Below are positions 19,090 through 60,428 of a stretch of 64,000 bases of DNA, in pieces. Each line of letters opens with the position of its first letter. The stretch's first letter is position 1. Source of the DNA: Phytohabitans maris (GTDB lineage Bacteria > Actinomycetota > Actinomycetes > Mycobacteriales > Micromonosporaceae); contig NZ_JAVHUY010000001.1 of assembly GCF_031085175.1 (NCBI RefSeq), positions 248,001-312,000 of the forward strand, given 5' to 3'. The notes under the pieces are model-generated. The model had not been told where the DNA came from, ran no database searches, and saw nothing but the letters and a program-made list of their open reading frames with translations. The translations under genes were made by a program, and so were the position numbers.

Positions 19090-19983
19090 GTGACGCTGCT
19101 GCGGATGGGCACCGCCATCGTCGGGCGATACATCGTCTTGCGGCCGATCGGGCGCGGGGGCGTGTCGGTCGTGTACGAGGCAGTGGACGCGGTGTCGCCG
19201 CGCCCGCTCGCCGTAAAGGTGCTGTCGCCGGCGCTGGCCGATGACGCCCGCGCGCAGGACAGCGTGCGGCGCGAGGCGCTCATCACGCAGCGCCTGCGGC
19301 ATCCGAGCGTGCCGCGGATCTACGACTTCGGCGACATGCGGCTGCCCGATGGCGGTTCCGCGCCGTACATGGTGATGGAGCTGCTCAGCGGCGTCTCGCT
19401 GGCCGACCGGCTCGCCGACGGCCCGATGCCGTGGGAGGAGGCGTTGCGGGTCGCCGCGACGGTCGCCGACGTGCTGGCGGTGGCGCACCGGCGGGGCTTC
19501 GTGCACCGCGACCTCACGATCGAAAACATCATGCTCACCCGCGACGGCGTGAAGATCATCGACTTCGGGCTGGCGACCACTGTGGACCGCCCGCGAAACG
19601 ACCGCCCGCGGGTGACCCGCACCACCGTGCCGCGCCGGCCGGCCGTGCCCGCGCACCCGGTCACGAGCGCTGCCCAGCCGGCCGACGACGTGTACTCGCT
19701 GGGCGTGCTCCTCTACCAGATGCTGACCGGCCGCTCGCCGTACCCGGGGTCGCTGGAGTCGCCGCACGTGCGCCGCCTGGCGCCGACGCCCGTGCTGGCG
19801 ATCGCCGGCCTGCCCCGCGAGGTCGCCGACATGTGCCGCTCGTGCATGGCCAAGCGCCCCGCCGACCGGCCGAGCAGCCGCGACCTCGCGTTCGCGCTCT
19901 GGGCGATGCTGCCCGCCCCGTCCATCCCCACCCGTGATCAAAGCTCCCTCGAAGTCGCTAGAACGACGTCAAGGGAGCTTTGA
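19090..19983 (+). CDS. Soluble Ser/Thr protein kinase with atypical activation segment
   Basis: A 297-residue kinase domain with no membrane or sensor part. Visible are the glycine loop PIGRGGVSVVYEA, the ATP lysine in LAVKVLSP, the hinge MVMELLSG, HRDLTIENIML and IIDFGLA. Two points are odd. The lysine that normally follows HRD-L is Thr. The activation segment after DFG is Pro/Arg-rich and lacks a recognisable APE motif before DDVYSLGVLLYQML. Catalysis may be weak or regulated differently. The last ~16 codons lie within a 60-bp palindrome and its TGA directly abuts the stop of the convergent surE. GTG 19090 is used; ATG 19105 is an equally good start. Confidence 0.85.
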   Translation: MTLLRMGTAIVGRYIVLRPIGRGGVSVVYEAVDAVSPRPLAVKVLSPALADDARAQDSVRREALITQRLRHPSVPRIYDFGDMRLPDGGSAPYMVMELLSGVSLADRLADGPMPWEEALRVAATVADVLAVAHRRGFVHRDLTIENIMLTRDGVKIIDFGLATTVDRPRNDRPRVTRTTVPRRPAVPAHPVTSAAQPADDVYSLGVLLYQMLTGRSPYPGSLESPHVRRLAPTPVLAIAGLPREVADMCRSCMAKRPADRPSSRDLAFALWAMLPAPSIPTRDQSSLEVARTTSREL

Positions 19984-19990
19984 TCACGGG
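19931..19990. terminator. Palindromic repeat terminator, copy 1
   Basis: Arms of 27 bases (CCCGTGATCAAAGCTCCCTC onward) pair across a 6-base centre with two mismatches. It is one of three related palindromes; the others are at 36891-36952 and 60373-60428. Here it overlaps the last codons and stop of the kinase gene, and the surE stop lies in the outer right arm (19984-19986). It is well placed to end both transcripts. Confidence 0.85.
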
Positions 19991-20790
19991 CCGTCGGGCA
20001 GGTCGACGTCGACCTCGCTTACCGCGCGTACTGCCGTGAGCGTGGCGTACCCCTCGGCCAGCAGCGCCAGGTCGGTACCCTCCTCCAGCCGCGCGCTGGA
20101 CTCCTCGAGCGCCGTCCGCACGTACCCCCGGCCGGTCTCCGCCACCGCCATCTGCACCTGGCCGAAGCGGGCCAGCCGGGCCCGGCGTACCCCCTTGACG
20201 TGGTCGCGGGGGAGGTCCGGGACGTTGAGGTTGAGGACGGTGCCCTCCGGGAGGTCTTTGACCGTGGGGAGCAGGTCGGCGGCGATGGCCGCCGCGGTCT
20301 CCCAGTGCCGCCCCGCGTCGGTGTGCCCCGGCCGCAGCCCGGCCGCGCCGCCGCTCGCCGCGGAGGCCGCGCTGGCGGTGAGCACGTCCAGCGAGACGGC
20401 GAGCGCCCGCGAGCCGTTGTCGGCGGCGGTGAACGCGGCGCCGACCGTACCCGAGTGGAGCACCGCGAGGCCGGCGTTGGCGCCCCGGTTGATGCCGGAG
20501 TAGACCAGGTCGGGCGCCGGGCCGAAGGCGCCCCGGCTGGCGATCAGCACGATGAACGCGGGCGAGCCGGCCACCCCGTACGCCTCGACGCCGTCGAGAC
20601 CGTCGATCGTGTGGGTCACCACCACGATCCGCCCGTCCTCCTCCACGGCCGTCATCGCCGCGCTCATGCCGCTCGCCTCCTGGCTGGGCGCGGCGACCAC
20701 CACGTCGTGCCCCGCGCTCGCCAGCGCCCGTGCCAGGACCCGGATGCCCGGCGCCTGGATCCCGTCGTCGTTCGTGACAAGTATCCTCAT
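19984..20790 (-). CDS. surE: 5'/3'-nucleotidase SurE
   Basis: A 268-residue SurE phosphatase, which removes phosphate from nucleoside monophosphates and is linked to stationary-phase survival. The metal site is visible in MRILVTNDDGIQAPG (adjacent Asp residues), APSQEASGMSAAMT (Ser ligand) and SGINRGANAG (Asn ligand). Length is normal. Its start overlaps the stop of the upstream pfkB-type gene by four bases (ATGA), so the two are translationally coupled. Its stop immediately abuts that of the converging Ser/Thr kinase, both within a palindromic terminator. Confidence 0.93.
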   Translation of the reverse strand: MRILVTNDDGIQAPGIRVLARALASAGHDVVVAAPSQEASGMSAAMTAVEEDGRIVVVTHTIDGLDGVEAYGVAGSPAFIVLIASRGAFGPAPDLVYSGINRGANAGLAVLHSGTVGAAFTAADNGSRALAVSLDVLTASAASAASGGAAGLRPGHTDAGRHWETAAAIAADLLPTVKDLPEGTVLNLNVPDLPRDHVKGVRRARLARFGQVQMAVAETGRGYVRTALEESSARLEEGTDLALLAEGYATLTAVRAVSEVDVDLPDGP

Positions 20791-21710
20791 GCGTCAAGTC
20801 TCTTCAGGTTTACCCGCTCGACAAGGCTCCGCACCGCGTCGGCCCGGCCGCTGCCGAGCCCGTGGCGGGTGACGTTGAGGGCGCCCGCCGCCGCGCCGGT
20901 GCGCACCGCGGTGCCCGCGTCGCCGCCCTGGGCCAGCACGGCCGCCACCCCGGCGGTCATCGAGTCGCCGGCCCCGCGCGCGTCGGCCACCTCCAGGCGG
21001 GGCGACTCCACCCGGTACGCCTCGCCGTCCAGCAGCGCCAGCGCCCCCTCGCCGGCCCGGCTGACGAGCACCGTGGTGGCGCCGTCGGCGTGCAGCCCGT
21101 GCAGCGCGCCGATCAGCTCGGCCTCGCTGTCGTCCTTGGCCCGCCCGTCGGTGATCAGCTCCTCGTGGCTGGCCTTGACCAGATACGGCTGCCCTTGGAG
21201 CACCGCCGACAGGTAGTCGCCGGAGAGGTCGGCCACCACCTTGACACCGTTGCGGCCGAGGTCCGCGGCGAGCCGCCGGTACGTGTCGGCGGGCAGCATC
21301 GACGGCTCCGCCGGCCCGCTGAGCACCGCGACCTGCGCCCGCATGGCGGCAGCGAGCGTGAGGCTGTAGAGCTCGTCCAGCTCGTGGCGGTTCAGCGGCT
21401 CGCCAGGCACGTCGGCGATCTCGGTGCGGGTGCCGCCGCGCCGGTCGTGCACGTACCCTCCGCTGGTCGCCTCGCGGGTGACCGCCCGCAGCTCGATCCC
21501 TTCGGCGGAGAGCAGCGCCTGGAGCACCTGGCCGATCTCGCCGCCGACCGCCGCGCACATGACGACCGGCGGGCCCAGCTCGATGATCATGCGGGCCTGC
21601 CACACGCCCTGGCCGCCTGGGTGTACGTGGATCTCCACCGCCTCGGCCGGCTGCTCGACGGTCACGGTGAGCTGCGGCGCCGGCGCGAACACCAGGACGT
21701 GGTTGGCCAT
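20787..21710 (-). CDS. PfkB-family carbohydrate kinase
   Basis: A 307-residue ribokinase-superfamily enzyme. The C-terminal signature ADARGAGDSMTAGVAAVL contains the catalytic Asp and anion hole of PfkB kinases. HPGGQGVWQARM near residue 32 resembles the N-terminal substrate motif, and LVKASHEELITDGR and TTVLVSRAGEGAL are conserved core blocks. The overall look is near 1-phosphofructokinase and tagatose-6-phosphate kinase (VLVFAPAPQLTVTVE start), but the substrate is uncertain. ATG 21710 is used since longer forms run into the promoter region. It is coupled to surE by a four-base overlap. Confidence 0.85.
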   Translation of the reverse strand: MANHVLVFAPAPQLTVTVEQPAEAVEIHVHPGGQGVWQARMIIELGPPVVMCAAVGGEIGQVLQALLSAEGIELRAVTREATSGGYVHDRRGGTRTEIADVPGEPLNRHELDELYSLTLAAAMRAQVAVLSGPAEPSMLPADTYRRLAADLGRNGVKVVADLSGDYLSAVLQGQPYLVKASHEELITDGRAKDDSEAELIGALHGLHADGATTVLVSRAGEGALALLDGEAYRVESPRLEVADARGAGDSMTAGVAAVLAQGGDAGTAVRTGAAAGALNVTRHGLGSGRADAVRSLVERVNLKRLDA

Positions 21711-21952
21711 ACCCCCTAGTTCCCCGCCCGGGCGGTTGATACGCGCGCCCGCCCGCCGGTGCGGCGGGTCCTGCCCCACGGCTTGTAGGCGGAAATGGCG
21801 GTTAGCGCGGTCAGCGCCACGAACGACACGCGTTCGCGGGAAGGGTCGGCGCCGCCGTCGGTCCGGCAGCGGCGATCCGGGTACGCCCGGGAGGCACACG
21901 AAAGCCATTGACGTTTATGATTAACGAACATCATCAATGGAAGGGTTGCTTC

Positions 21953-23128
21953 ATGAGAGTGCGTGCACGGGTCGCCGTCGCCGGGGCGGCCGCGCTGCTG
22001 GTCAGCGCCGCGGTCGCGGTGAGCCCGACCCTGGTACCAGCGGCCGGGGCGGCCGCCGGCTGCCTCGTCGACTACCGGGTCAACCAGTGGGCCGGCGGGT
22101 TCACCGCGACGGTACGGGTGACCGCGGGCGACGCCGCCGCCAACGGCTGGACGGTCACCTGGACGTACGGCGGCGACCAGCGCATCACGAACGGCTGGAG
22201 CGCCACCGTGACCCAGTCCGGTGCCGCGGTCACCGCGACCAACGCGGCGTGGAACGGCTCGCTGCCGGCCGGTGGCTGGACCGAGTTCGGCGTGCAGGGC
22301 ACGTACGCGGCGAGCAACGCCGCGCCGTCGGGCTTCACGCTGAACGGCGAGGCCTGCAACGGTGCGGCCCCCACCTCGCCTCCCGCCACCTCCGCTCCGC
22401 CGACCTCCGCTCCGCCCACGTCGCCGCCTCCGCCCACCGGGTGCGGGACGGCCGCCTTCTGCGACGGCTTCGAGAGCCAGGCGGGCGGTGCCCCGTCCGG
22501 CGCGTGGAGCGTGTCCTATCCGGACTGCCAGGGCACCGGGACGGCCACAGTGGACACCGGGGTCGCGCACAGCAGCGCCAAGTCGGTACGCGTGAACGGC
22601 GCCACCGGCTACTGCAACCACGTCTTCGTGGGTACGACGAGCGGAGTGAGCGGCCTGGGCGCCGTGCGGTACGCCCGCTTCTGGGTACGCCACACGACCG
22701 CGCTTCCGGCCCAGCACGTCACGTTCCTGGCCATGCGCGACGCCGCCGACGGCAACCGCGACCTGCGCATGGGCGGCCAGAACGGTGCCCTGCAATGGAA
22801 CCGTGCCTCCGACGACGCCACGCTGCCCGAGCAGAGCCCGGCCGGGGTCGCGCTGAGCCTGCCGCTGGCGACGAACCGGTGGACCTGCGTCGAGTTCACT
22901 GTGGACGGCACACAGGGCCACCTGCGTACCTGGGTGGACGGCGGTGAGGTGGCCGGCCTGGTCGCCGACGGCACCCCCACGCCGGACGTCGACCGCCAGT
23001 GGTCGTCCCGCGCCAACTGGCGCCCCAACCTCACGGACCTGCGGCTGGGCTGGGAGAGCTACGGCGAGGGCGCCGACACCCTCTGGTTCGACGACGTAGC
23101 CCTGAGCACCACCCGCATCGGCTGCTAG
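21953..23128 (+). CDS. Secreted CBM2 protein with C-terminal Cip1-like domain
   Basis: A 391-residue secreted protein. Residues 1-32 are a Sec signal ending in PAAGAAA. Residues ~34-132 are a family 2 carbohydrate-binding module (CLVDYRVNQWAGGFTATV, NGWTVTWTY, AWNGSLPAGGW and a closing Cys), which binds cellulose or chitin. A Pro/Ser/Thr linker follows (~135-158). The last ~230 residues begin CGTAAFCDGFES, end LWFDDVALSTTRIGC and contain RFWVRHTTALPAQHV; this resembles the jelly-roll of fungal/actinobacterial Cip1-type proteins, but I recognise it by look only and assign no activity. AAGGG precedes ATG 21953. A TATGAT element at 21916-21921 may be part of its promoter. No CebR-type operator was found. 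Confidence 0.82.
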   Translation: MRVRARVAVAGAAALLVSAAVAVSPTLVPAAGAAAGCLVDYRVNQWAGGFTATVRVTAGDAAANGWTVTWTYGGDQRITNGWSATVTQSGAAVTATNAAWNGSLPAGGWTEFGVQGTYAASNAAPSGFTLNGEACNGAAPTSPPATSAPPTSAPPTSPPPPTGCGTAAFCDGFESQAGGAPSGAWSVSYPDCQGTGTATVDTGVAHSSAKSVRVNGATGYCNHVFVGTTSGVSGLGAVRYARFWVRHTTALPAQHVTFLAMRDAADGNRDLRMGGQNGALQWNRASDDATLPEQSPAGVALSLPLATNRWTCVEFTVDGTQGHLRTWVDGGEVAGLVADGTPTPDVDRQWSSRANWRPNLTDLRLGWESYGEGADTLWFDDVALSTTRIGC

Positions 23129-23137
23129 CACAAGCGA

Positions 23138-23169
23138 TCCGGGAGGGAGCGACCCCGCTCCCTCCCGGA
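23138..23169. terminator. Strong hairpin between converging CBM2 and GH3 genes
   Basis: A perfect 14-bp stem, TCCGGGAGGGAGCG / CGCTCCCTCCCGGA, with the loop ACCC. It lies 9 bases after the CBM2 stop and 20 bases from the end of the converging GH3 gene, so it can serve both. Confidence 0.8.
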
Positions 23170-23189
23170 CGGTGGCGGGCGCAACCTGC

Positions 23190-24899
23190 TCAGCCGGCCT
23201 GGGCGGTGCAGGACGATCGCGGGAGGCCGGTGACCGGGACGGGGGAGCGGCCCTTCGCCGGGGTCTTGCCGGCCAGTACGGCGGCCAGGGCGGCCATCGA
23301 CGGCTGGCTGGACGAGTACGTGGCGAGCAGCACCGGCGAGTCGGACTTGGCCAGCAGGTACGGGGTGTCCATCGCGACCGTGACGGCCGCGCCCTTGCGG
23401 AGGTCGCCCTGCCCGTCGCCGTACCCGACCAGGTGGACCACCGTACCGCCGCTCGTGACGACCTGGACGCCGGCGGCGCGCAGGGCTTCGACGAGCCAGC
23501 CGCGCGCGGTGTCGCGGCCGCCCGCGGCGGTGACCTGGACCGGGCCGCGCAGTGCGGTGCCGCAGGCGCCGCGGAGCTGGGTGACCGCGGCGGCGGCGAG
23601 CTTGGCGGCGGCCTCGCGGTGGGCGGCGCTGCCCACAGTGGACATCTCCGGCGCGGCGCCGCCGGCCAGCTCGAACCTCAGCGTCAGCACCCGGGTGACC
23701 GCCTCGACCAGGCGGGCGCGGCTCAGGTCGCCGACCCGCAGGCCGGACAGCAGGCCGTTGTACGCCTCGGGCAGCTTGTCGGGCATCAGCAGGAGGTCGT
23801 TGCCGGCGTTGAGGGCGCGCACCGCCGCCTCGCCGGCGGGCCAGCGCTTGGCCGGGGCCATGTTCATGCCGTCGGTGACGACCACGCCCTGGAAGCCGAG
23901 CTGGCCGCGGAGCAGGTCGGTGAGGACCTTGCGGGAGAACGTCGCGGGCGTGCCCGGGTCGATCGCCTTCACGTCGAGGTGGCCGGACATCACGAGCTTG
24001 GCACCGGCGCCGATGCCCGCCACGAACGGGGGCAGGTCGCCGCGGTCGAGGCTGGCCCGGCTCTGCCCGAGACCGGGCAGCGCGTCGTGCGAGTCGCCGG
24101 CGGTGTGGCCGTGGCCCGGAAAGTGCTTGAGCGTGGCCGCGACGCCGCTCGCCTGCAGGCCGCGTACGGCGCCGGCGACCTGCGCGGAGACCTGGGTCGG
24201 GTCGGCGCCGAACGAGCGGGAGCCGATCACCGAGCTGCCCGCGTTGCCGAGCACGTCGGCGACCGGGGCGAAGTCGACGTTGACGCCCAGCGCGGCGAGC
24301 TCGTCGCCGGCCGCGCGCCAGGCGGCCTCGGTGAGGCGGGGATCACCGGCCGCGCCGGCACCCATCGCGCTCGGCAGCGCGGTCACGCCGGTCTTGATCC
24401 GGGTGACCACGCCGTACTCCTGGTCGGTGCCGATGAGCAGCGGCGCGGAGCCGGCGGCGAGCTTGGCGCTGGCGGCCTGCAGCCCAGTGGTGAGCCCGCG
24501 CACCTGCTGGGGGCTGTCCACATTGGTCGTGCCCTGGTTTTGCGAGGTGGGGTCGTCCGCGGAGAAGCCGACCAGGATCAGGCCGCCGAGGCGGTACCGG
24601 GCGACCATCTCGGCCGGGGTGTCGACGCCGGCCAGCTGCTGGTTGCCCGCCTTGTTGCCGGGCGTGACGTCGGTGGCCGAGGAGCCGTACGCGTACGGCA
24701 TCAGCACCTGCCCCACGAGGTCTTCGTCGGAGAGCGTGCCGGCGAGGGCGGCGGCCCGCTGCGCCGGGCTTGAGCCGGCCGGCGGCGTCGGTCTGGCGGA
24801 CGCGGGTGCGGACGTGGTGGGGGCCGGCGCCGGAGGGGAAGACTGGCAGCCGGCCGCGAGCAGGAGCACGGCCAGGAGCGCGCGGGTTCGCAGACGCAC
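23190..24899 (-). CDS. Glycoside hydrolase family 3 lipoprotein (NagZ-like)
   Basis: A 569-residue lipoprotein. The signal ends in the lipobox LLAAGC, and a Pro/Ser/Ala linker follows. The GH3 catalytic domain shows GTDQEYGVVTRI, NVDFAPVADVL, KHFPGHGHTAGDSH and VVVTDGMNMAPA. The last contains the Asp nucleophile. The His of DSH in the preceding motif forms the general acid/base dyad of beta-N-acetylhexosaminidases of the NagZ type. A C-terminal ~150-residue GH3 accessory domain follows. Removal of N-acetylglucosamine from cell-wall or chitin fragments outside the membrane is likely. GTG 24899 is preferred over an upstream TTG at 24935 because it gives a compact signal peptide. Confidence 0.9.
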   Translation of the reverse strand: MRLRTRALLAVLLLAAGCQSSPPAPAPTTSAPASARPTPPAGSSPAQRAAALAGTLSDEDLVGQVLMPYAYGSSATDVTPGNKAGNQQLAGVDTPAEMVARYRLGGLILVGFSADDPTSQNQGTTNVDSPQQVRGLTTGLQAASAKLAAGSAPLLIGTDQEYGVVTRIKTGVTALPSAMGAGAAGDPRLTEAAWRAAGDELAALGVNVDFAPVADVLGNAGSSVIGSRSFGADPTQVSAQVAGAVRGLQASGVAATLKHFPGHGHTAGDSHDALPGLGQSRASLDRGDLPPFVAGIGAGAKLVMSGHLDVKAIDPGTPATFSRKVLTDLLRGQLGFQGVVVTDGMNMAPAKRWPAGEAAVRALNAGNDLLLMPDKLPEAYNGLLSGLRVGDLSRARLVEAVTRVLTLRFELAGGAAPEMSTVGSAAHREAAAKLAAAAVTQLRGACGTALRGPVQVTAAGGRDTARGWLVEALRAAGVQVVTSGGTVVHLVGYGDGQGDLRKGAAVTVAMDTPYLLAKSDSPVLLATYSSSQPSMAALAAVLAGKTPAKGRSPVPVTGLPRSSCTAQAG

Positions 24900-24946
24900 G
24901 CCAGCTATCAGAACAGCCTGGGCGAGCCGGGGCAAATGGACGACCG

Positions 24947-25438: not shown

Positions 25439-25691
25439 TGTGACCTCCCGGAGAGCGAGGTGCGTCTTCCCCTACGACCTCGATCAACGGGCGGTTGAAT
25501 CACATGATGACTGGTGTGACGGATGGTGCGCCAGAGAATCGGAAAACTCGGCCGAGAATTCCCCTTGGTCGTAACGCATTTCCGCCGGCGTTGTGACGGA
25601 GAGCGCTGGCCACCGCACGAGCGGTGCGGCCGGTGCATCGGGTAAAGTTCTCTGGTCTGTTTACTCTGTCCTCCCTGCAAGGAGTGCCTCC

Positions 25692-26018: not shown

Positions 26019-26031
26019 GCCCAACATCTGA

Positions 26032-26063
26032 CAGAGGCCCCGCCCATTTGGGCGGGGCCTCTG
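26032..26063 (+). terminator. Strong hairpin terminator after the 108-residue gene
   Basis: A perfect 15-bp stem, CAGAGGCCCCGCCCA / TGGGCGGGGCCTCTG, with a two-base core loop, 13 bases after the stop codon. The next gene begins 138 bases later on the same strand. Confidence 0.85.
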
Positions 26064-30373: not shown

Positions 30374-30382
30374 CCTGGGCCG

Positions 30383-31291: not shown

Positions 31292-31411
31292 AAGTGGCCC
31301 TGAGCAGGGCGTACTTGATTCGTCACGATCAGTGCAACAGTGGGCACATCGATGGAAAGCCGCTATTCTCGGCTCCGGTCGACGCCCGGTGGCGCCCCCC
31401 GGCGCCGGTGT

Positions 31412-31540
31412 TGACCGCCGCCGAGTCGCCCTCGGGCGAGCCGGGGAACCACCGATCCACTGGGGTGAATCCGCGACAGCGGTAGGGGTACTTCCGTCCC
31501 GAACCCGTCAGCTAACTCGGTAGGCGGCTGACTGGAAGGA
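31412..31540 (+). ncRNA. Cyclic-di-AMP riboswitch (ydaO-yuaA type)
   Basis: The leader of the peptidoglycan hydrolase gene contains the actinobacterial ydaO consensus in order: CGCCGAGTC, GAGCCGGGGAACCA, TGGGGTGAATCCGC, a short variable stem, TAGGGGTACTTCCGTCCCG, AACCCGTCAGCTAACTCGGT and AGGCGGCTGACTGGAAGGA. This class binds cyclic-di-AMP and usually turns off expression of cell-wall hydrolases, resuscitation factors and ion/osmolyte transporters. The 3' end of the motif overlaps the GGAAGGA ribosome site of the gene, so control of translation or termination just before the start is likely. Confidence 0.93.
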
Positions 31541-31546
31541 TGGTTG

Positions 31547-33638: not shown

Positions 33639-36026
<2,388 letters not shown>

Positions 36027-36066: not shown

Positions 36067-36888
36067 ATGCCGGCACCACCTAGGGTGTACGGGGTGGAGG
36101 CGACCGAGATCCGCAAGCTGGCCGCGCTCGAGGACACCCACTGGTGGTACCGGGAGCGCCGCGTGCTGCTCGACCGGGCGTTGCGCCGCCTCCCTCGTCC
36201 GGTCGCTCCGGTCGCCCGTGTCGCTGCCCCTTCCGGCGGCGGTTTCGGCGCTCGTGGTGTCTTTGGGGCGCCTGGTGCAGGCGGTGGCCGCTGGGCTCTG
36301 GACATCGGGGCGGCCGGCGGCGGCAACACGCGGGTGCTCAAGCGCCGAGGATGGTCGCCGGTCGCGCTGGAGTACGGCCCGGAGGGGGCCGAGGTGGCCG
36401 CCGAGCGGGGGCTCGACGTGATCCGGGCCGACGCCCGCGCGCTGCCGCTGCCGAACGCGAGCCTGGACCTGGTCGTCGCGTTCGACGTGCTGGAGCACAT
36501 CGACGAGGACCACGCCGCGGCCGGCGAGATCCACCGCACCCTGCGGCCGGGTGGCAGCGCGCTGATCGCCGTACCCTGCGACATGCGGCTCTGGTCCGCC
36601 CACGACGTCGCGGTCGGCCACGTGCGGCGGTACACCCGGGAGTCGCTGGCCGCCGTCGTGGAGAAGGCCGGGCTGGTCATCGACGAGATGTGGAGCTGGA
36701 ACGTCCTGCTCCGCCCGATCGCAGCCTGGCGCCGCCGCAAGTCCACCGGCAGCGACCTCGACGACCTGCCGGCCGTGGTCAACCTCGGGCTGACCGCGAT
36801 CATCGCCGCCGAGCGGTACCTGCCGGTCAAGTCGCTCCCCGGCGTCTCCCTGATGCTCCGCGCCCACCGCCGTACCGAGTCGGGGTGA
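36067..36888 (+). CDS. Class I SAM-dependent methyltransferase
   Basis: A 273-residue methyltransferase. WALDIGAAGGGNTRVL is motif I (SAM binding), VALEYGPEG motif II, IRADARALPLPNASLDLVVA motif III/IV, and DVLEHIDEDHAAAGEIHRTL the post-motif helix with GGSALIAVP. A Gly/Ala/Pro-rich insert (residues ~48-75) precedes motif I. HWWYRERRVLLDRAL at the N-terminus is typical of methyltransferases near lipid-linked glycan genes. It follows the GT-C-like gene by 40 bases in the same direction and probably modifies the same glycan or lipid. A GTG at 36091 is an alternative start. It ends two bases before palindromic terminator copy 2. Confidence 0.87.
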   Translation: MPAPPRVYGVEATEIRKLAALEDTHWWYRERRVLLDRALRRLPRPVAPVARVAAPSGGGFGARGVFGAPGAGGGRWALDIGAAGGGNTRVLKRRGWSPVALEYGPEGAEVAAERGLDVIRADARALPLPNASLDLVVAFDVLEHIDEDHAAAGEIHRTLRPGGSALIAVPCDMRLWSAHDVAVGHVRRYTRESLAAVVEKAGLVIDEMWSWNVLLRPIAAWRRRKSTGSDLDDLPAVVNLGLTAIIAAERYLPVKSLPGVSLMLRAHRRTESG

Positions 36889-36890: not shown

Positions 36891-36952
36891 GGCTGTGATC
36901 AAAGCTCCCCTCAAGTCGTTCTAACGACTTGAGGGGAGCTTTGATCACAGCC
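36891..36952. terminator. Palindromic repeat terminator, copy 2
   Basis: A perfect 30-bp inverted repeat with a two-base centre (CT). The left arm starts GGCTGTGATCAAAGCTCCCC. Compared with copies 1 and 3 it carries C-G in place of T-A at the base pair inside GCTCCC, changed in both arms. It lies between the converging methyltransferase and accD genes, two and 15 bases from their stops. Confidence 0.9.
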
Positions 36953-36967: not shown

Positions 36968-38395
36968 CTAGAGGGGGATGTTGCCGTGGGCGCCGCGGGC
37001 GGCGGGTGCGCCGGCGAGCGCCTCGGCGATGCGGCGTCGCGTCTCGTCCGGCTTGATGACGTCATCGACCACGCCGATCTCCAGCGCTCGCCCGACGCCG
37101 CCGGCCACGCGGGTCTGCTCCTCGACGAGCTGGGTGCGCAGCGCCTCGCGCTCCTCGATCGGGGCGGCGGCGAGCTTCTTGCGGTGCAGGATGTTGACCG
37201 CCGCGGAGGCGCCCATGACCGCGAGCTCCGCGTTGGGCCAGGCGAAGACCGCGGTCGCCCCGAGGGAGCGGGAGTTCATCGCGATGTACGCGCCGCCGTA
37301 GGCCTTGCGGGTCACCAGCGTCACCCGCGGCACCACCGCCTCGGCGAAGGCGTGCAGCAGCTTGGCGCCGCGCCGCACCACGCCGTCCCACTCCTGGCCC
37401 AGGCCGGGCAGGTAGCCGGGCACGTCGACCAGCACGACCAGCGGTACCCCGAGCGCGTCGCACATCCGCACGAAGCGGGCCGCCTTCTCGGCGCTGGCCG
37501 AGTCGAGGCAGCCGCCCAGGCGCAGCGGGTTGTTGGCGATGACCCCGACGGTACGGCCGGCGAAGCGGCCCAGCGTCGTCACGATGTTGGGCGCCCAGCG
37601 GGCGTGCAGCTCCACCGCCTCGCCGTCGAGCAGCGCCTTGACCACCGGCTTGACGTCGTACGCGCGGTTTGCCTCGGCCGGCATCGCGGCGGCCATGTCG
37701 TGCCCGTCGACGTCGCCGACCGGCACGTCCGCCGGGCTGAGGCGGCCCTGGCGACCCAGCAGGTGGGCCAGCTTGCGCGCCTCGGCCAGCGCCGACTCGT
37801 CGTCCTTGGTGGTCACGTGCACCACGCCGGAACGCCGGCCGTGCGGCTCGGGGCCGCCCAGCCGCTCCATGTCGACCTGCTCGCCGGTGACCGAGCGGAC
37901 CACCTCCGGGCCGGTGACGAAGATCCGGCCGGCGCCGGCCATCACGACGATGTCGGTGAGCGCCGGGCCGTACGCCGCGCCGCCCGCCGCCGGACCGAGC
38001 ACCACGGAGATCTGCGGCACCCGCCCGGAGGCCCGCACCATCGCGGCGAAGACCTGGCCGACCGCGTCGAGCGCGACCACGCCCTCGGCGAGCCGGGCGC
38101 CGCCGGAGTGCCACAGGCCGAGTACCGGCACCCGCTCGCGGACGGCCTCGTCGATCGCGTCGACGATGTGGCGGCAGCCCTCGGCGCCCATCGCGCCACC
38201 CATCCTGGTGCCGTCGCTGGCGTACGCGATGGCGGGTGTGCCCTCGATCTCGCCGCGGGCCCACAGGACGCCGGAGTCGTCGCGCGACATCATCAGCCGC
38301 AGCGAGCCGGCGTCGAAGAGGGCACGCAGCCGTACCTCGGGGTCGCGATGGTCCACAGTGGACGAATCGGCGACGGCGGACGTGGTGGTGGTCAC
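36968..38395 (-). CDS. accD: Acyl-CoA carboxylase carboxyltransferase (beta) subunit
   Basis: A 475-residue biotin-dependent carboxyltransferase subunit, of the acetyl/propionyl-CoA carboxylase type common in actinobacteria. The N-terminal half has GAMGAEGCRHIVDAIDEAV, LWHSGGARLAEGVVAL and GPAAGGAAYGPALTDIVVM (acyl-CoA oxyanion pocket); the C-terminal half has GRTVGVIANNP, LVDVPGYLPGLGQEWDGVV (biotin side) and YGGAYIAMNSRSLGA. Transfer of carboxyl from biotin to acetyl-CoA gives the malonyl-CoA used by FabD. It is the last gene of the fab operon, 13 bases after fabF. The alpha (biotin) subunit is not in the window. Confidence 0.92.
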   Translation of the reverse strand: MTTTTSAVADSSTVDHRDPEVRLRALFDAGSLRLMMSRDDSGVLWARGEIEGTPAIAYASDGTRMGGAMGAEGCRHIVDAIDEAVRERVPVLGLWHSGGARLAEGVVALDAVGQVFAAMVRASGRVPQISVVLGPAAGGAAYGPALTDIVVMAGAGRIFVTGPEVVRSVTGEQVDMERLGGPEPHGRRSGVVHVTTKDDESALAEARKLAHLLGRQGRLSPADVPVGDVDGHDMAAAMPAEANRAYDVKPVVKALLDGEAVELHARWAPNIVTTLGRFAGRTVGVIANNPLRLGGCLDSASAEKAARFVRMCDALGVPLVVLVDVPGYLPGLGQEWDGVVRRGAKLLHAFAEAVVPRVTLVTRKAYGGAYIAMNSRSLGATAVFAWPNAELAVMGASAAVNILHRKKLAAAPIEEREALRTQLVEEQTRVAGGVGRALEIGVVDDVIKPDETRRRIAEALAGAPAARGAHGNIPL

Positions 38396-53720: not shown

Positions 53721-53754
53721 CCGCCGCCCCCTAAATGCGAAAGATCCTCGCACT

Positions 53755-54798
53755 CTAGTCCGCGACGCTGACCTCCGGGAACCCCTTGGCCAAGGCGGAA
53801 CGGACCGACCTGCCCAACGGTACGAACGGGGTCACGGTCCCGCTGTCCCAAACGCCGTCGATCCGCCCGTCGACCACCAGCACGGGCGAGATCCACCCTT
53901 GCGGGCGGGACACCTTGGCCTTGTGCGGACCGCTCACCACCCGGTCGAGCTGGCGCAGGCTGCCCACCGTGTACGGGTCGAACGCGGGCAGCAGGTGCAC
54001 GGTGGTGGGCCGTTCGCGCGCCACCTCGCCGGCCAGCTCGGCCGGCAGCGCGCCGCCCTCCACCTCGACCAGCTGGCCGGCGAGCCGGGCGAACGACCGC
54101 TTCGCCAGCGCCGGCTTCAGGTCGAACCACCGGCTGAACTCGTCCGCCGTCGACGGCCCGTACGTGCCCAGGTAGGCCAGAGCGAGCGTGTCGATGGCCG
54201 GCTCGGTCGCCACCTCGACCCACCCCTCAAGCCAGCGGCGCGGCGCGACGAACGTGACGTTTCGCCCGCGCGGCGGCCCCGAGCAGAGCAGCCCGCGGAA
54301 CGCGAGCGGCTTGAGCACCGCCCCGAAGCCCTGCGTGAGCGGCTCGCGCAGATCCTCGTGCCCGGTCGCCTCGATGATCGCGCCGGCGAGCTCCTCACGG
54401 GTGAGCGGCTCGGCGCCGAGCACGTCGGGTACGGCCGCGATGATGTCGGCCATCTGCTCGGCGGTCACCCCGTGGTAGCGCAGCCAGGAGCCGGTCGTCT
54501 CGCGGCCGCGCGTGGACATCGCGGCGACCCAGGTCGGCAGGTCGGCGGCGGGCAACAGGTGCAGCGTGCCCCGGGCGGCCCAGGTCTTCACCAGCCGCCG
54601 CCTTCGCCAAAGCTCCTCGTCGACGCTCTCCGCGCTGGTGCCGCCGGCCACCCGCAGGTCGAGCGCGGTCACCGCCGACGCGGCGAGCTGGGCGTGGACT
54701 CCGCTCAGCCGCCGGGCCGCCGCGACCGCGTCGGGAGCCCGCTCGGCGCCGAGGAACTGCCGCTCGATCCGCCAGCGAAGAATCTGGTCCCACGTCAC
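53755..54798 (-). CDS. Winged-helix DNA-binding protein (HTH_42, YcaQ/AlkX-related)
   Basis: A 347-residue protein of the HTH_42 superfamily. RLSGVHAQLAASAVTALDLR matches the N-terminal core, RRRLVKTWAARGTLHLLPAA the first winged helix and YLGTYGPSTADEFSRWFDLK another; LLPAFDPYTVGSLRQLDRVV and WISPVLVVDGRIDGVW are the C-terminal family blocks. Relatives include DNA glycosylases that remove alkylated or crosslinked bases, but the QxQ/QxD catalytic motif is not clearly present, so only DNA binding is claimed. GTG 54798 is the start. It follows the 154-residue gene by three bases, an operon. Confidence 0.85.
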   Translation of the reverse strand: MTWDQILRWRIERQFLGAERAPDAVAAARRLSGVHAQLAASAVTALDLRVAGGTSAESVDEELWRRRRLVKTWAARGTLHLLPAADLPTWVAAMSTRGRETTGSWLRYHGVTAEQMADIIAAVPDVLGAEPLTREELAGAIIEATGHEDLREPLTQGFGAVLKPLAFRGLLCSGPPRGRNVTFVAPRRWLEGWVEVATEPAIDTLALAYLGTYGPSTADEFSRWFDLKPALAKRSFARLAGQLVEVEGGALPAELAGEVARERPTTVHLLPAFDPYTVGSLRQLDRVVSGPHKAKVSRPQGWISPVLVVDGRIDGVWDSGTVTPFVPLGRSVRSALAKGFPEVSVAD

Positions 54799-54801
54799 GA
54801 T

Positions 54802-55266
54802 TCATCCCCAATGGGCCCGAAATACTGTCCGATCCACCGCCGCCCGCCAGCCGGAGTCGCCGGCGTCGGTCCGCAGCGCGGTGAGCGCGGCGATCGCGCC
54901 CTTGACAAGATCGGCCCAGTCGTACGGGGCGCCCGCCACGCCCTTCTGCATGAGGAATGCGAGACCGGCCGAGTTGCTGATCGCCCAGCCGCCGCGGCGG
55001 GGCGCGCGCCGCGCGGCGTCGCCGCCCTGGTCGCTGACCAACCGCACATGGAACGGGTAGCCGACCTCGCCACCCGGCTTGGTGACCGCGATGTGGGCGC
55101 TGGCCGGCTCGGCGCCGAAGACGTCGCGCAGGAACGAGGGCGCCGGCGCCTCGACGACGACCTCGACGCCGTCGCCGTACTCCCCGGGGTCACCGGCGGT
55201 GGCGACCCCGCGGATGAGCTCGACCACGACCGACGGATCCCGCCGGTCGAAGATCACCCAGTCCAC
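54802..55266 (-). CDS. Hypothetical protein
   Basis: A 154-residue cytoplasmic protein, starting at GTG 55266 with DWVIFDRRDPSVVVELIRG. It has alternating strands and helices (GDGVEVVVEAPAPSFLRDVF, GWAISNSAGLAFLMQKGVAG, DWADLVKGAIAALTALRTDA) and no membrane segment. No family is recognised. Three bases separate it from the winged-helix gene, so they are surely cotranscribed. The aceE terminator lies just upstream. Confidence 0.75.
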   Translation of the reverse strand: MDWVIFDRRDPSVVVELIRGVATAGDPGEYGDGVEVVVEAPAPSFLRDVFGAEPASAHIAVTKPGGEVGYPFHVRLVSDQGGDAARRAPRRGGWAISNSAGLAFLMQKGVAGAPYDWADLVKGAIAALTALRTDAGDSGWRAAVDRTVFRAHWG

Positions 55267-55284
55267 GCCGACACCCTGCCACGA

Positions 55285-55311
55285 CGAGGGCGCCCGCGTG
55301 GGGCGCCCTCG
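55285..55311 (-). terminator. aceE terminator
   Basis: A perfect 11-bp stem, CGAGGGCGCCC / GGGCGCCCTCG, with loop GCGTG, starting ten bases after the aceE stop on the minus strand and ending before the next gene. Confidence 0.75.
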
Positions 55312-55321
55312 CCAGCGGGGA

Positions 55322-58066
55322 TCAGCTGTCGCCGCCGGTCTCGCCGACCGGAGCGGCGTTGACGTCGTCGATCGCGTACTTCTTGGCCGCCTCGGCCGGC
55401 ACCGCGGCCGGGATCTCGCCGCGGACCGCGAGCTGGCGCAGCGCCGCCACGGCGACCGACTCGGCGTCGACGTGGAAGTGCCGGCGCAGCGCGTGCCGGG
55501 TGTCGGAGAGGCCGAAGCCGTCCGTACCGAGCGAGGTGTAGTCGCTCGGCACCCAGCGGGCGATCAGGTCCGGCACCGCCCGCATCCAGTCGCTGACCGC
55601 CACCACCGGGCCGGGCGCCTCGGCCAGCTTGGCCTTGACGTACGGCGTGCGCGCCGGGCTGCCCGGGTGCAGCAGGTTGTACTCCTCGGCCTGCACGGCG
55701 TCGCGGCGCAGCTCGGTCCAGGAGGTCACCGACCACACGTCGGCCGCCACGCCCCAGTCCTGGGCGAGCAGCTGCTGGGCCTTGAGCGCCCACTGCATGC
55801 CGGTGCCGGAGGCGAGGATCTGCGCCTTCGGGCCGTCGACCTTGGGCGCCGGCGAGTACCGGTAGATCCCCCGCTTGACGCCCTCGACGTCGAGGTCGTC
55901 CGGCTCGGCCGGCTGCAGGATCGGCTCGTTGTAGACGGTCAGGTAGTAGAAGACCGGCTCGGACTGCTCGCCGTACATGCGGTGCAGGCCGTCCTCGACG
56001 ATGTGCGCGATCTCGAACGCGAACGCCGGGTCGTACGCCACCACGGCCGGGTTGGTCGCCGCGATCAGGTGCGAGTGGCCGTCTTCGTGCTGCAGGCCCT
56101 CGCCGTTGAGCGTGGTGCGGCCGGCCGTGGCGCCGAGCACGAAGCCGCGCGCCATCTGGTCGGCGGCCGCCCAGAACCCGTCGCCGGTGCGCTGGAAGCC
56201 GAACATCGAGTAGAAGATGTACAGCGGGATCATCGGCTCGCCGTGCGTCGCGTACGCGGTGCCGGCGGCGGTGAACGAGGCGACCGAGCCGGCCTCGTTG
56301 ATGCCCTCGTGCAGGATCTGCCCGGCCGTCGCCTCCTTGTACGACAGGAAGAGCTCCCGGTCGACGGACGTGTACTTCTGCCCGTGCGGCGAGTAGATCT
56401 TCTGCGTCGGGAAGAGCGAGTCCATGCCGAACGTGCGCGCCTCGTCCGGGATGATCGGCACCCACCGCCGGCCGAAGTCCTTGTCCTTCATCAGGTCTTT
56501 GAGCAGCCGGACGAAGGCCATGGTGGTGGCCACCTTCTGCTTGCCCGAGCCGCGCTTGACGTCGGCGAAGCGCTCGGTGCCCGGGATCTGCAGCGGGATC
56601 GTGGTGGTGCGCCGGGTCGGCAGGTAGCCGCCGAGGTGCTCGCGCCGCTCGCGCAGGTACTGCATCTCGTCCGACTTCTCACCGGGGTGGAAGTACGGGG
56701 GCAGGTAGGGGTTGGACTCCAGCGCGGAGTCGGGGATGTCGAGGTAGAGCCGGTCGCGGAACGACTTGAGGTCGTCGAGCGTCAGCTTCTTCATCTGGTG
56801 GGTCGCGTTGCGCCCCTCGAAGTGCGAGCCGAGCGTCCAGCCCTTGATCGTCTTGGCGAGGATCACGGTCGGCTGGCCGGTGTGCTCGACCGCCGCCTTG
56901 TACGCCGCGTAGAGCTTGCGGTAGTCGTGGCCGCCGCGCTTGAGGTTCCAGATCTCCTCGTCGCTCATGTGCTCGACCATCTTGCGGGTGCGCGGGTCGC
57001 GCCCGAAGAAGTGCTCGCGGACGAAGGCGCCGGACTCGGCCTTGTAGGTCTGGTAGTCGCCGTCGGGCGTGGTGTTCATGAGGTTGACCAGCGCGCCATC
57101 GGTGTCGGCGGCGAGCAGCGGGTCCCACTCGCGGCCCCAGATCACCTTGATCACGTTCCACCCGGCGCCGCGGAAGAACGCCTCCAGCTCCTGGATGATC
57201 TTGCCGTTGCCGCGTACCGGGCCGTCGAGGCGCTGCAGGTTGCAGTTGATCACGAAGGTGAGGTTGTCGAGCTCCTCGCGGGCGGCCAGCCCGATCGCGC
57301 CGAGCGACTCGACCTCGTCCATCTCACCGTCGCCGAGGAACGCCCATACGTGCTGGTCGGACGTGTCCTTGATGCCCCGGTGGTGCAGGTACCGGTTGAA
57401 TCGGGCCTGGTAGATCGCGTTGAGCGGGCCGAGACCCATCGAGACGGTCGGAAACTCCCAGAAGTCCGGCATCAGCCGGGGGTGCGGGTAGCTGGGCAGC
57501 CCGCGGCCCGGTCCGGCGTGCGAGAGCTCCTGGCGGAACCCGTCGAGCCGGTCCTCGGTCAGCCGCCCCTCCAGGAATGCCCGCGCGTACATGCCGGGGG
57601 AGGCGTGGCCCTGGAAGAAGATGTGGTCGCCGCCACCCGGGTGGCTCTTGCCGCGGAAGAAGTGGTTCATGCCGACCTCGTAGAGGGAGGCGGCACTCGC
57701 GTACGTCGATATGTGCCCGCCGACGCCGATCTCGGGGCGCTGGGCGCGGTGCACGAGCATCGCCGCGTTCCACCGGATGTACGCCCGGATGCGCCGCTCG
57801 ACGAACTCGTCGCCGGGGAACCAGGGCTCCTGCTCGGGCGGGATGGTGTTGATGTAGTCGGTCGTGGTCAGGGGCGGGACCCCGACCTGGCGCTCGCGGG
57901 CCCGTTCGAGCAGGCTCAGCATGACGTAGCGGGCGCGTTTGGCGCCACGCTCGTCGATGACCGCGTCGAGCGACTCGATCCACTCGCGGGTCTCCTCGGG
58001 ATCGATGTCGAGAAGCTGGCTCGGCAGGCCATCGCTGATCACCGGGCGCTTGCGTTCGGTAGCCAC
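55322..58066 (-). CDS. aceE: Pyruvate dehydrogenase E1 component, homodimeric type
   Basis: A 914-residue thiamine-diphosphate enzyme that decarboxylates pyruvate and passes the acetyl group to the E2 lipoyl domain. [20 protein letters not shown] and [20 protein letters not shown] hold the conserved His residues; [20 protein letters not shown] through [20 protein letters not shown] is the thiamine-diphosphate/Mg motif (GDG to NCNLQ); [11 protein letters not shown] lies in the pyrimidine domain. Length is normal for actinobacteria. GTG 58066 follows GAGGGAG. No E2 or E3 gene is adjacent, as is common for aceE in actinomycetes. A terminator follows. Confidence 0.96.
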
Positions 58067-58167
58067 CAGCGCTCCCTCTGCTTTGTGTGATGGGTCTCTG
58101 TAGCCTCCATCCTGCCTTGTGCTCCGGCCTCCGTCACGCCTGGTCGACCCGTACGCGACGCTCGACA

Positions 58168-58195
58168 CATGTACCAGTTGGTAACAAAGCGTCAA
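58168..58195 (-). promoter_or_regulatory. Candidate housekeeping promoter of aceE
   Basis: On the minus strand TTGACG (58195-58190) and TACATG (58173-58168) are 16 bases apart, about 100 bases before the aceE start. The -35 match is good and the -10 match only fair. Confidence 0.35.
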
Positions 58196-58204
58196 CCTGG
58201 ACCG

Positions 58205-58609
58205 TCAGCCGGGGAGGAAGGAAAAGCGGACCTCTCGGGTGGGGTTGTCGCCGTTCGTGTCGACCAGGCAGATCGACTGCCAGGTGCCGAGCGCGACCCG
58301 CCCGTCGACCACCGGGAGCGACGCGTACGGCGCGACGAAGGCGGGCACCACGTGGTCCCGCCCGTGCCCCCGGGCGCCGTGCCGGTGCCGCCAGCGGTCG
58401 TCGGCCGGCAGCACGGCGTCGAGCGCGGTCAGCAGGTCGTCGTCCGAGCCGGCGCCGGTCTCGATGATCGCCACGCCGGCGGTCGCGTGCGGCACGAAGA
58501 CGTGCAGCAGCCCGTCGCCCTGGCCGTCGACGAACGCGGCCGCCTCGCTCGTGATGTCGTGTACGGTGGCCCGCCCGCCGGTCCGCACCGTGATCACCTT
58601 TGTGTGCAT
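58205..58609 (-). CDS. yjbQ: YjbQ family protein (UPF0047)
   Basis: A 134-residue YjbQ/UPF0047 protein. HVFVPHATAGVAIIETGAGS and later HGRDHVVPAFVAPYASLPVV with LGTWQSICLVDTNG are the family signature, holding the conserved His residues and metal/phosphate site. E. coli YjbQ has weak thiamine-phosphate synthase activity; the true role is unknown. ATG 58609 is the start, leaving only 21 bases to the divergent DUF4139 gene, so their promoters overlap. Confidence 0.92.
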   Translation of the reverse strand: MHTKVITVRTGGRATVHDITSEAAAFVDGQGDGLLHVFVPHATAGVAIIETGAGSDDDLLTALDAVLPADDRWRHRHGARGHGRDHVVPAFVAPYASLPVVDGRVALGTWQSICLVDTNGDNPTREVRFSFLPG

Positions 58610-58630
58610 CCCGCCAGTATGGTTTGACCC

Positions 58631-60370
58631 GTGGAATCCGTGAGGGAGCGGGGCGGTGCGGACGCCGCCCACGGCGGCGGTGAGGGACCGACCAGTGCGG
58701 GCGCGGTGCGGGAGCCGGGCGGCCCGGACGCCGTCCACGGCGGCGGTGAGCGACCGGCCAGCGCCGGCCCGGTCGTGCTCGACGCCCCCATCGTGGCGGT
58801 CACGGTCTATCCGGACCGGGCCCGGGTGACCCGCCGCGGCAAGCTGCGGCCGCCTGCCGGCCTGAGCACGGTCCACATCGGACCCCTGCCGCTCGGGCTG
58901 CACCGCGACTCGGTGCGGGTCGGCGGCCACGGCCCGGCCACCGTGCTCGGCGTCGACGTGGTCGTCCGCCACCATCCCCGCCCCACCGACGAGACCGTCG
59001 CGCGGGTCGAGGAGGCCCGCCGGGCGGTCACCGCCGAGCTGGCCGAGCTCGCCGACGACGAGGCGGTCGAGGCGCAGCGGGCCGAGTTCCTCGCCACGCT
59101 CGCCCAGCGGGCCGGCTCGACGTACGCGCGGGCGGTGGCGGCCGGCGAGGCCGACCCGGCGGCCGTGGCCACGTTCGCCGACTCGATCGCCGACCAGCTC
59201 GCCGCCGGCAAGGCCCGCCAGCGCGACCTCGCCCGCCGCGCGGAGGAAGCCCGCGACCGCAAGGACGCGCTCGACCGCCGGCTCAAGGAGGTCTCCGGCA
59301 AGCGCGGGCCGGACCAGCTGGCCGCCGCGGTCAGCCTCCAGGTGACCGCCGCCGAGGGGGTCGAGCTGGAGCTGTCGTACGTGGTGGAGGGCGCCGGCTG
59401 GGAGTCCACGTACGACGTGCGCCTCGCCGACGACCGGCTGGCCGTCACCTGGTTCGGGCTGGTCACCCAGCACACCGGCGAAGACTGGCCGGAGTGCGAG
59501 CTCGTGCTCTCGACCGCCCGCCCGGCGACTACCACGACCGTTCCCGACCTCGACCCGTGGTACCTCGACCGCATCCGCCCGCTCCCGGTCGCGCGGGCCG
59601 TGGCGGCGTCCCGGAGCAGGGAGATGCTGCGCGCCGGCGGCCCGCCGGTCCCGCCGCCCGCGGCCATGCCGGCCGGGTTCGGTGGCGACGCGTTCGCGGG
59701 CGACGCCGAGGTGGCGATGCTGGCCGAGAGCACGGGCGTGGTCGAGCAGGGCGTCGCCGCCGCGACGTACCGGCCGGAGCACCCCGTGGCCGTGCCCGCC
59801 GACGGCACCGCCCACCGGGCCACCGTCGCCGTGCTCGACCTCGGCGCCGAGCTCGACTACGTGACCGCGCCGGCCCAGTCGCCCGACGCCCACCTGCGGG
59901 CCACCGCGGTCAACACGTCGGCGCACACGCTGCTGCCCGGACCGGCCTCGGTCTTCCACGACGCCGACTTCGTCGGCACCACGCGGCTGGAGACCTGGGC
60001 GCCGGGCGAGGAGGTGGAGCTCGCCCTCGGCCTCGACGACCGGATCCGGGTGGAGCGCAAGCTGACCCGGCGTACGGCGACTAAGGCGGCGCTCGGCTCG
60101 ACCCGGCGCCGCGAGGTGGAGTACCGGACCACGGTCGCCAACCACACGCCCCGCCCGGCCAAGGTCACCGTGCTGGACCAGATCCCGGTCTCCCGGGACG
60201 AGGGGATCACGGTGCGGGCGTTCAAGGTCGATCCCAACCCGGTCGACCGCACCGACCTGGGCGTGCTGAGCTGGAAGCTGGAGCTGGCCCCGGGCGAGAC
60301 CAAGGAGGTCAACATGGGCCTGCGCGTGGAACTCGCGAGGGGCGTGGAGATGTCCGGCTGGCGGGAGTAG
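58631..60370 (+). CDS. DUF4139 (MuiA-like) protein with N-terminal tandem repeat
   Basis: A 579-residue protein. Residues ~50-150 form the N-terminal DUF4140-like domain (APIVAVTVYPDRARVTRRGK), followed by a charged helical region (~120-225) and the DUF4139 beta domain (ELSYVVEGAGWESTYDVRLA, NTSAHTLLPGPASVFHDADF, TTVANHTPRPAKVTVLDQIP). Function is unknown; a related E. coli-group gene was named for inhibiting mucoidy. Residues ~5-48 are two imperfect 22-residue copies (RERGGADAAHGGGEGPTSAG / REPGGPDAVHGGGERPASAG). GTG 58631 is used, but a GTG at 58775, after the repeats and directly before the domain, may be the true start. It converges on phoD. Confidence 0.85.
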   Translation: MESVRERGGADAAHGGGEGPTSAGAVREPGGPDAVHGGGERPASAGPVVLDAPIVAVTVYPDRARVTRRGKLRPPAGLSTVHIGPLPLGLHRDSVRVGGHGPATVLGVDVVVRHHPRPTDETVARVEEARRAVTAELAELADDEAVEAQRAEFLATLAQRAGSTYARAVAAGEADPAAVATFADSIADQLAAGKARQRDLARRAEEARDRKDALDRRLKEVSGKRGPDQLAAAVSLQVTAAEGVELELSYVVEGAGWESTYDVRLADDRLAVTWFGLVTQHTGEDWPECELVLSTARPATTTTVPDLDPWYLDRIRPLPVARAVAASRSREMLRAGGPPVPPPAAMPAGFGGDAFAGDAEVAMLAESTGVVEQGVAAATYRPEHPVAVPADGTAHRATVAVLDLGAELDYVTAPAQSPDAHLRATAVNTSAHTLLPGPASVFHDADFVGTTRLETWAPGEEVELALGLDDRIRVERKLTRRTATKAALGSTRRREVEYRTTVANHTPRPAKVTVLDQIPVSRDEGITVRAFKVDPNPVDRTDLGVLSWKLELAPGETKEVNMGLRVELARGVEMSGWRE

Positions 60371-60372
60371 CC

Positions 60373-60428
60373 CGTGATCAAAGCTCCCTTCAAGTCGTTA
60401 GAACGACTTGAAGGGAGCTTTGATCACG
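60373..60428. terminator. Palindromic repeat terminator, copy 3
   Basis: A perfect 27-bp inverted repeat with a two-base centre (AG) starting CGTGATCAAAGCTCCCTTCA. It begins two bases after the DUF4139 stop and ends 18 bases before the converging phoD stop. It has T-A where copy 2 has C-G, changed in both arms. Confidence 0.9.

What the first reader, a model, noticed from the sequence alone, without database searches (positions are those of the whole stretch)
19931..60428. Three dispersed copies of a 56-62 bp palindrome, each between converging genes, with compensatory changes
Copies at 19931-19990, 36891-36952 and 60373-60428 share GTGATCAAAGCTCCC, CAAGTCGTT and their complements but not their flanks. 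Where copy 2 has C in the left arm opposite G, copy 3 has T opposite A, so pairing is conserved while sequence is not. The perfect stems are 30 and 27 bp with two-base centres, far longer than needed for a terminator. All three lie at 3'-3' gene junctions. Either a mobile palindrome has been chosen as a two-way terminator, or it has a further role such as RNase III processing or DNA-strand crossing.
Basis: partly seen in the sequence, partly recalled or inferred. Interest (0 to 1): 0.85.

Follow-up and report, generated by a model that had tools for sequence, protein, structure and literature searches.

The report
Repeated hairpins capping gene ends
A soil bacterium carries a few hundred copies of one 54-letter palindrome, nearly all placed just after genes, where it probably stops transcription in both directions and sometimes supplies the gene's stop codon; a close relative has almost none, so the copies look recently gained.

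Summary
The window lies in a genome of the same genus as Phytohabitans flavus. The three palindromes sit at convergent gene ends and belong to a family with 232 strict copies in this genome; the five other genomes of the genus have 57, 36, 3, 2 and 1, reversed-pattern controls 0.

Of 88 full copies placed against my gene calls, 56 are convergent, 28 co-directional, 3 divergent, 1 intragenic; 52 of 324 junctions on contig C1 are convergent. Median distance to the nearest stop codon is 6 nt (84 copies); 27 of 28 co-directional copies lie nearer the upstream stop. Arms co-vary. No U-tract follows.

None of 15 sites mapped to P. flavus has the palindrome; 3 of 15 mapped to G032 do, with other arm letters. 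Copies were gained, and arm sequence is lineage-specific.

Best reading: a REP/BIME-like dispersed palindrome used as a U-less two-way terminator and 3'-end cap. It fails the RAYT-type REP tests: no Y1 transposase in six genomes, no GTAG tag. Termination and mobility are inferred, not measured.

The parts
19931..19990 (.). palindrome copy 1 (core 19934-19987), imperfect inner arm; holds the stop codons of both convergent genes (19981-19983 and 19984-19986)
36891..36952 (.). palindrome copy 2 (core 36895-36948), perfect 30-bp arms; flanks shared with other copies in the genome
60373..60428 (.). palindrome copy 3 (core 60374-60427), perfect 27-bp arms; P. flavus has the two stop codons overlapping in one TGATCA here and no palindrome
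19090..19983 (+). protein kinase gene (PF00069); its last 16 residues RDQSSLEVARTTSREL are encoded by the palindrome
19984..20790 (-). SurE-family gene (PF01975), converging on copy 1
36085..36888 (+). methyltransferase gene (PF08241), upstream of copy 2
36968..38395 (-). carboxyl transferase gene (PF01039), converging on copy 2
58631..60370 (+). DUF4139/DUF4140 gene, upstream of copy 3
60447..62018 (-). PhoD-like phosphatase gene (PF09423), converging on copy 3

Best explanation
The palindrome is one member of a dispersed family, amplified in this lineage, whose copies sit just after stop codons. Shown: copy number, placement, arm covariation, gain at sites that two relatives lack, and stop codons inside some copies. 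Inferred: transcribed from either side it folds into a hairpin of about -40 kcal/mol that halts or releases RNA polymerase (or Rho-ended transcripts) without a U-tract and shields the mRNA 3' end; between convergent genes one copy serves both strands. Inferred: it spread as a non-autonomous element, and copies that landed at gene ends were kept because they bring a stop codon (TGA in GTGATC, sometimes CTAG in the flank) and a terminator, while insertions elsewhere were lost.
For: 232 strict copies, controls 0. 56 of 88 full copies convergent against 52 of 324 C1 junctions, p 1e-23, or against 22% of intergenic bases, p 3e-17. Median 6 nt from the nearest stop (84 copies), 27 of 28 co-directional copies nearer the upstream stop. 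26 of 122 nearby gene ends have their stop codon wholly inside the palindrome (22 at GTGA), 2 more overlap by one base. Cores of 73 copies fold at mean -41.7 kcal/mol; window copies z -8.7 to -13.6. Arms co-vary: 602 of 730 variable cells pair against 535.6 +/- 7.7 with arms shuffled. 10 of 12 sites mapped in both relatives lack the palindrome in both. Copy 1 adds a 16-residue tail where P. flavus ends otherwise. In Streptomyces clavuligerus 353 of 535 structured transcript 3' ends lack a U-tract (PMC8269248, passages).
Against: No RNA data. No U-tract: 111 of 121 gene ends have at most 2 T in the 10 nt after the hairpin, and the consensus terminator scan finds none round copy 2. No transposase found, and outer inverted repeats are not general. 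Exact sequence conservation of the outer GTGATC (73 of 73 on both arms) is more than pairing alone needs. 3 divergent and 1 intragenic copies.
Confidence: 0.68

Rival explanations
1. It is mainly an mRNA 3'-end stabiliser or RNase III site: transcription ends elsewhere (Rho or read-through) and the hairpin marks and protects the trimmed 3' end.
For: Long U-less stems right after stop codons; REPs are held to stabilise mRNA (PMC3733652, abstract); Rho-ended transcripts in other bacteria carry such stems at their 3' ends (PMC8269248, passages).
Against: Does not by itself explain the 8.5-fold per-junction preference for convergent pairs. Not separable from termination by sequence.
Confidence: 0.35
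2. It is a purely selfish element whose enzyme targets gene ends (CTAG or TGATCA near stops); position reflects target choice, not function.
For: CTAG within 20 nt outward is 5 to 9 times as dense as at stops without a copy; TAG stops 54 of 122 near copies against 80 of 325, p 8e-5; a few copies have outer inverted repeats and short target duplications (L280, L298, C1:378878); CTTTCGGRGTCRGG occurs 61 times genome-wide against 9 reversed.
Against: Outer inverted repeats are not general: mean score 7.99 against 7.80 for mismatched flanks, 3 of 88 at 14 or more; CTAG on both sides in 4 of 88, 5.8 expected; cores are conserved where flanks are not.
Confidence: 0.25
3. The palindromes are old vertical terminators homogenised in each genome by gene conversion; P. 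flavus lost them.
For: Three junctions carry a palindrome in both G000 (AGCTCC type) and G032 (GGCGTCC type), plus one matched on one flank; the copies listed are of one type within each of these two genomes.
Against: 10 of 12 doubly mapped sites lack it in both relatives, several with almost gapless neighbours; at two shared sites P. flavus has unrelated hairpins. The own DNA compared on C12 was chosen round own copies, so the shared fraction is biased upward.
Confidence: 0.15
4. It is a DNA-level site (gyrase, nucleoid protein or cruciform) that relieves supercoiling between converging genes.
For: Perfect duplex palindromes and invariant outer GTGATC; a similar idea is discussed for REPs between convergent genes (PMC1525189, passages).
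Against: 28 of 88 copies are at co-directional ends hugging the upstream stop, which tracks transcript ends rather than convergence.
Confidence: 0.1

Closest known systems
REP / BIME elements (E. coli, Pseudomonas; GTAG and CGTC super-families, PMC3733652, PMC2817692)
   Same: Short palindromes in high copy number, outside genes, mostly downstream of coding regions between convergent or co-directional genes, species-specific sequence
   Different: 54 bp with long near-perfect arms and a fixed core, mostly single copies, no unpaired GTAG tag, no RAYT (Y1) transposase in the six genomes
U-less ('I-shaped') terminators and structured U-lacking 3' ends of high-GC actinobacteria (PMC8269248)
   Same: Strong hairpin right after the stop codon without a U-tract; can serve both strands
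   Different: There each terminator is a different sequence; here one sequence family is repeated by the hundred
Terminators built from paired DNA uptake sequences (Haemophilus, Neisseria; PMC1852404, search listing only, PMC1590033, passages)
   Same: A repeated motif in inverted pairs serving as hairpin at gene ends
   Different: No free-standing motif population seen: in the loci shown only L028 had an arm without a partner; competence was not examined
MITEs
   Same: Non-autonomous dispersed units; a few copies carry outer inverted repeats and short target duplications
   Different: These ends are absent from most copies and no autonomous partner was found

Membership tests
REP/BIME (RAYT-associated, GTAG) | more than 100 copies of a short palindrome per genome, extragenic | tested here: met
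   232 strict copies; 1 of 88 full copies intragenic. Length 54 nt exceeds the 20-40 bp given in PMC3733652 but is within the 21-65 given in PMC1525189
REP/BIME (RAYT-associated, GTAG) | located downstream of genes, convergent or co-directional | tested here: met
   84 of 88 convergent or co-directional
REP/BIME (RAYT-associated, GTAG) | unpaired GTAG (or CGTC) tag at one end | tested here: not met
   within 8 nt 5' of the foot: GTAG 2 of 176, GGAG 0 of 176, CGTC 13 of 176
REP/BIME (RAYT-associated, GTAG) | RAYT/Y1 transposase (PF01797) in the genome | tested here: not met
   0 of 6 genomes; control rings in 5 of 14 known genomes
REP/BIME (RAYT-associated, GTAG) | inverted pairs or clusters of units | tested here: not met
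   copies are mostly single; the closest strong copies on C1 are about 7 kb apart, and few of the fetched loci hold two within 1.3 kb
canonical intrinsic terminator | GC-rich hairpin followed by a U-tract | tested here: not met
   hairpin yes, U-tract no
U-less hairpin terminator | transcript 3' ends at the hairpin | not testable with these tools
   no RNA data held; position after stop codons fits
MITE | terminal inverted repeats and target-site duplication | tested here: inconclusive
   seen in a few copies, not general
MITE | related autonomous element | tested here: inconclusive
   30 of the 61 sites of the end motif were read for an inverted partner within 2.5 kb; only weak partners seen and no transposase search was run on them
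paired uptake-sequence terminator | the same motif abundant as free single copies | tested here: inconclusive
   only L028 lacked a partner arm among loci shown with a + strand match

The most novel reading that the evidence does not exclude
A domesticated gene-end cassette: a family of palindromes capped by invariant GTGATC, recurring in Micromonosporaceae with lineage-specific inner arms, spreads without a RAYT and equips genes with stop codon and two-way terminator in one piece; arms change in step across all copies of a genome, so a sequence-specific factor reading the GTGATC foot or the inner arm may be involved in movement or termination.
Probability: 0.3. Interest if true: 0.75.

Novelty: new variant of a known kind. 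Interest (0 to 1): 0.52.

Why it matters
It gives a clear case in high-GC actinobacteria, which rarely use U-tract terminators, of a repeated element that seems to have become the transcription-end signal for many genes at once. Occupied and empty orthologous junctions in close relatives make it testable whether mobile palindromes supply terminators, how quickly terminators turn over, and how arms change in step across a genome. I found no paper describing this family in the searches, which cover open-licence PMC papers only.

Tried and rejected
RAYT/REP membership: looked for Y1 transposase in six genomes, none; looked for GTAG/CGTC tags, not general.

A general MITE structure with outer inverted repeats: three striking copies suggested it, but over 88 copies the outer flanks are no more inverted-repeated than mismatched flanks, and CTAG on both sides is not above chance. 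Kept only as a lead.

An autonomous element sharing the end motif CTTTCGGRGTCRGG: 61 sites, 9 in the reversed control; 30 loci read, no convincing partner.

Shared family with the Micromonospora-type 58-bp palindromes (GTGATCAAGAGGTTTGCGTCA): same first letters, but the few loci seen are not tight to stop codons; relation left open. The 25 of 150 genomes include single matches that look like chance, two of them intragenic.

A check of another hairpin family used arms in the wrong order, so its zeros mean nothing. Rfam gave no family for the palindromes. The covariance-model counts are capped at 150 scored candidates per genome and were not used as copy numbers. The pattern count (236 + 240, control 3 + 1) counts symmetric-centred copies on both strands, so it is not a copy number either.

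Limits: gene calls are from my own codon-usage caller, not a published annotation. The 88 copies come from 927,592 bases: contig C1 whole plus stretches round exact matches listed (88 of the 100 listed places lie in the sequence examined), so highly diverged copies are under-sampled and part of one arm was fixed by that pattern. A copy whose centre lies within 60 nt of a gene's 3' end was counted as at the end.
Full report
What is there. The three palindromes are present as described; copy 1 has an interrupted inner arm. The half-site occurs 6 times in the window against 0.81 expected. My gene caller, trained on contig C1, puts all three at convergent junctions. Pfam names for the six genes: protein kinase and SurE, methyltransferase and carboxyl transferase, DUF4139 protein and PhoD-like phosphatase.

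Where it comes from. The PhoD-like gene is 95% identical to one in Phytohabitans flavus NZ_AP022870.1. That chromosome has the same length and the same matches as G092, which the tool places in the window's genus. Aligned stretches average 87% identity to P. flavus and 82% to G032, another genome of the genus.

How many. GTGATCAAAGCTCCC occurs 48 + 47 times in the genome, reversed control 0. A pattern for whole palindromes, open to both arm types, finds 232 in this genome, 57 in G032, 36 in G078, 3 in G058, 2 in G104 and 1 in G092, controls 0. Among the copies that call lists, those of G000 have GCTCC-type arms and those of G032 GCGTCC-type arms, so pairs differ between species while pairing is kept. 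Across 150 Micromonosporaceae genomes, GTGATCAA...TTGATCAC is found in 25, control 0; some are single matches, and the Micromonospora-type ones may be a different family.

Where the copies sit. In 927,592 bases I found 92 copies, 88 full-length: 56 convergent, 28 co-directional, 3 divergent, 1 intragenic. On C1 junctions are 52 convergent, 220 co-directional, 52 divergent. The excess of convergent sites has p 1e-23 by junction count and 3e-17 by intergenic bases; per junction it is 8.5-fold over co-directional sites. Distance to the nearest stop has median 6 nt in 84 copies; 27 of 28 co-directional copies are nearer the upstream stop than the next start. Of 122 gene ends within 60 nt, 26 have the stop codon wholly inside the palindrome, 22 of them as the TGA of GTGATC. 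The kinase gene at copy 1 ends in RDQSSLEVARTTSREL, encoded by the palindrome, where P. flavus ends in SPTRA. In 42 loci from other genomes, chosen by pattern or model, 24 were convergent, 11 co-directional, 4 divergent and 3 intragenic.

Structure. Copies 1-3 with flanks fold at -45.6 to -59.9 kcal/mol, z -8.7 to -13.6; 73 cores average -41.7. On 16 distinct aligned copies the covariation score is 0.114 against 0.064 +/- 0.010 shuffled, 0 of 500. On 73 copies 602 of 730 cells at variable pairs are Watson-Crick against 535.6 +/- 7.7 with arms dealt anew. At pair 7, G-C occurs 48 times, A-T 16, mixed 9. The outer GTGATC is invariant on both arms in all 73. No U-tract follows: 111 of 121 gene ends have at most 2 T in 10 nt.

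Gain of copies. Of 18 sites that mapped to at least one relative, 15 mapped to P. flavus and none has the palindrome; 15 mapped to G032 and 3 do; 12 mapped to both and 10 lack it in both. At copy 3, P. flavus has the two genes ending in one overlapping TGATCA. At the shared sites the two species carry different arm types, and P. flavus has unrelated hairpins at two of them. A fourth shared site matches on one flank only. The DNA compared on contig C12 was fetched round own copies, so the shared fraction is biased upward.

Flanks. 45 pairs of 14-nt flanks agree within 2 mismatches against 1.75 in shuffles, so some copies moved with neighbouring DNA. Three copies (in L280, L298 and at C1:378878) have outer inverted repeats, and for the last two short target duplications can be read by eye, but this is not general. 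CTAG is dense within 20 nt of the copies (0.0085 and 0.0142 per base against 0.0016 at other stops), and TAG stops are over-used near them (54 of 122 against 80 of 325, p 8e-5). CTAG lies within 35 nt of 41 of 88 copies, on both sides in 4, with 5.8 expected.

Comparison with what is known. REPs lie downstream of genes and carry GTAG or CGTC tags (PMC3733652: abstract and passages); RAYTs go with many of them (PMC2817692: passages). The placement here is the same; the tag and the transposase are not found. Stem-loops at gene 3' ends that belong to repeat families are known in other bacteria (PMC1590033: passages). In Streptomyces clavuligerus 353 structured transcript ends lack a U-tract and 182 have one (PMC8269248: passages). 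So it works like a U-less terminator inside a REP-like family, but is not a member of the RAYT-type REPs as tested.

Verdict. An amplified, lineage-specific palindrome family acting most likely as a two-way 3'-end signal. Copy number, placement, pairing and gain of copies are shown; termination, protection and the means of spread are inferred.

Noticed in passing
31409-31542 (+): c-di-AMP (ydaO/yuaA) riboswitch, 86.9 bits in Rfam.
   Followed up: no
35211-35302: A run of about 36 G followed by about 36 C inside a predicted gene. Similar G/C runs lie beside palindromes at C1:378770-378877 and in L291, L292 and L342; possibly assembly or sequencing artefacts.
   Followed up: no
L302 7406-7525 and 7739-7862: A dispersed repeat of about 120 bp, present in inverted orientation, with dozens of matches in P. 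flavus and in G032.
   Followed up: no
G032 C1, e.g. stretch 5990001-6390000 offset 294792-294855: Another repeated long palindrome, TGCAAGGAAGGGCCCCTTGTTA with its complement, three copies in the 600 kb read, at convergent gene ends.
   Followed up: no
G000 C1:47203, C1:257043, C1:350710 and P. flavus stretches: A further repeated hairpin, GATCGTGGTA with its complement, lying farther from stop codons. My count of it in whole genomes used a wrong pattern.
   Followed up: partly
G004 and other genomes (L134-L141): 58-bp palindromes GTGATCAAGAGGTTTGCGTCA or similar, up to 74 per genome by strict ends, not tight to stop codons in the few loci seen.
   Followed up: partly
G032 C1: Listed palindrome copies are sparse in the first 2 Mb (3) and dense from 2.1 to 3.6 Mb (about 20); the list stops there.
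   Followed up: no
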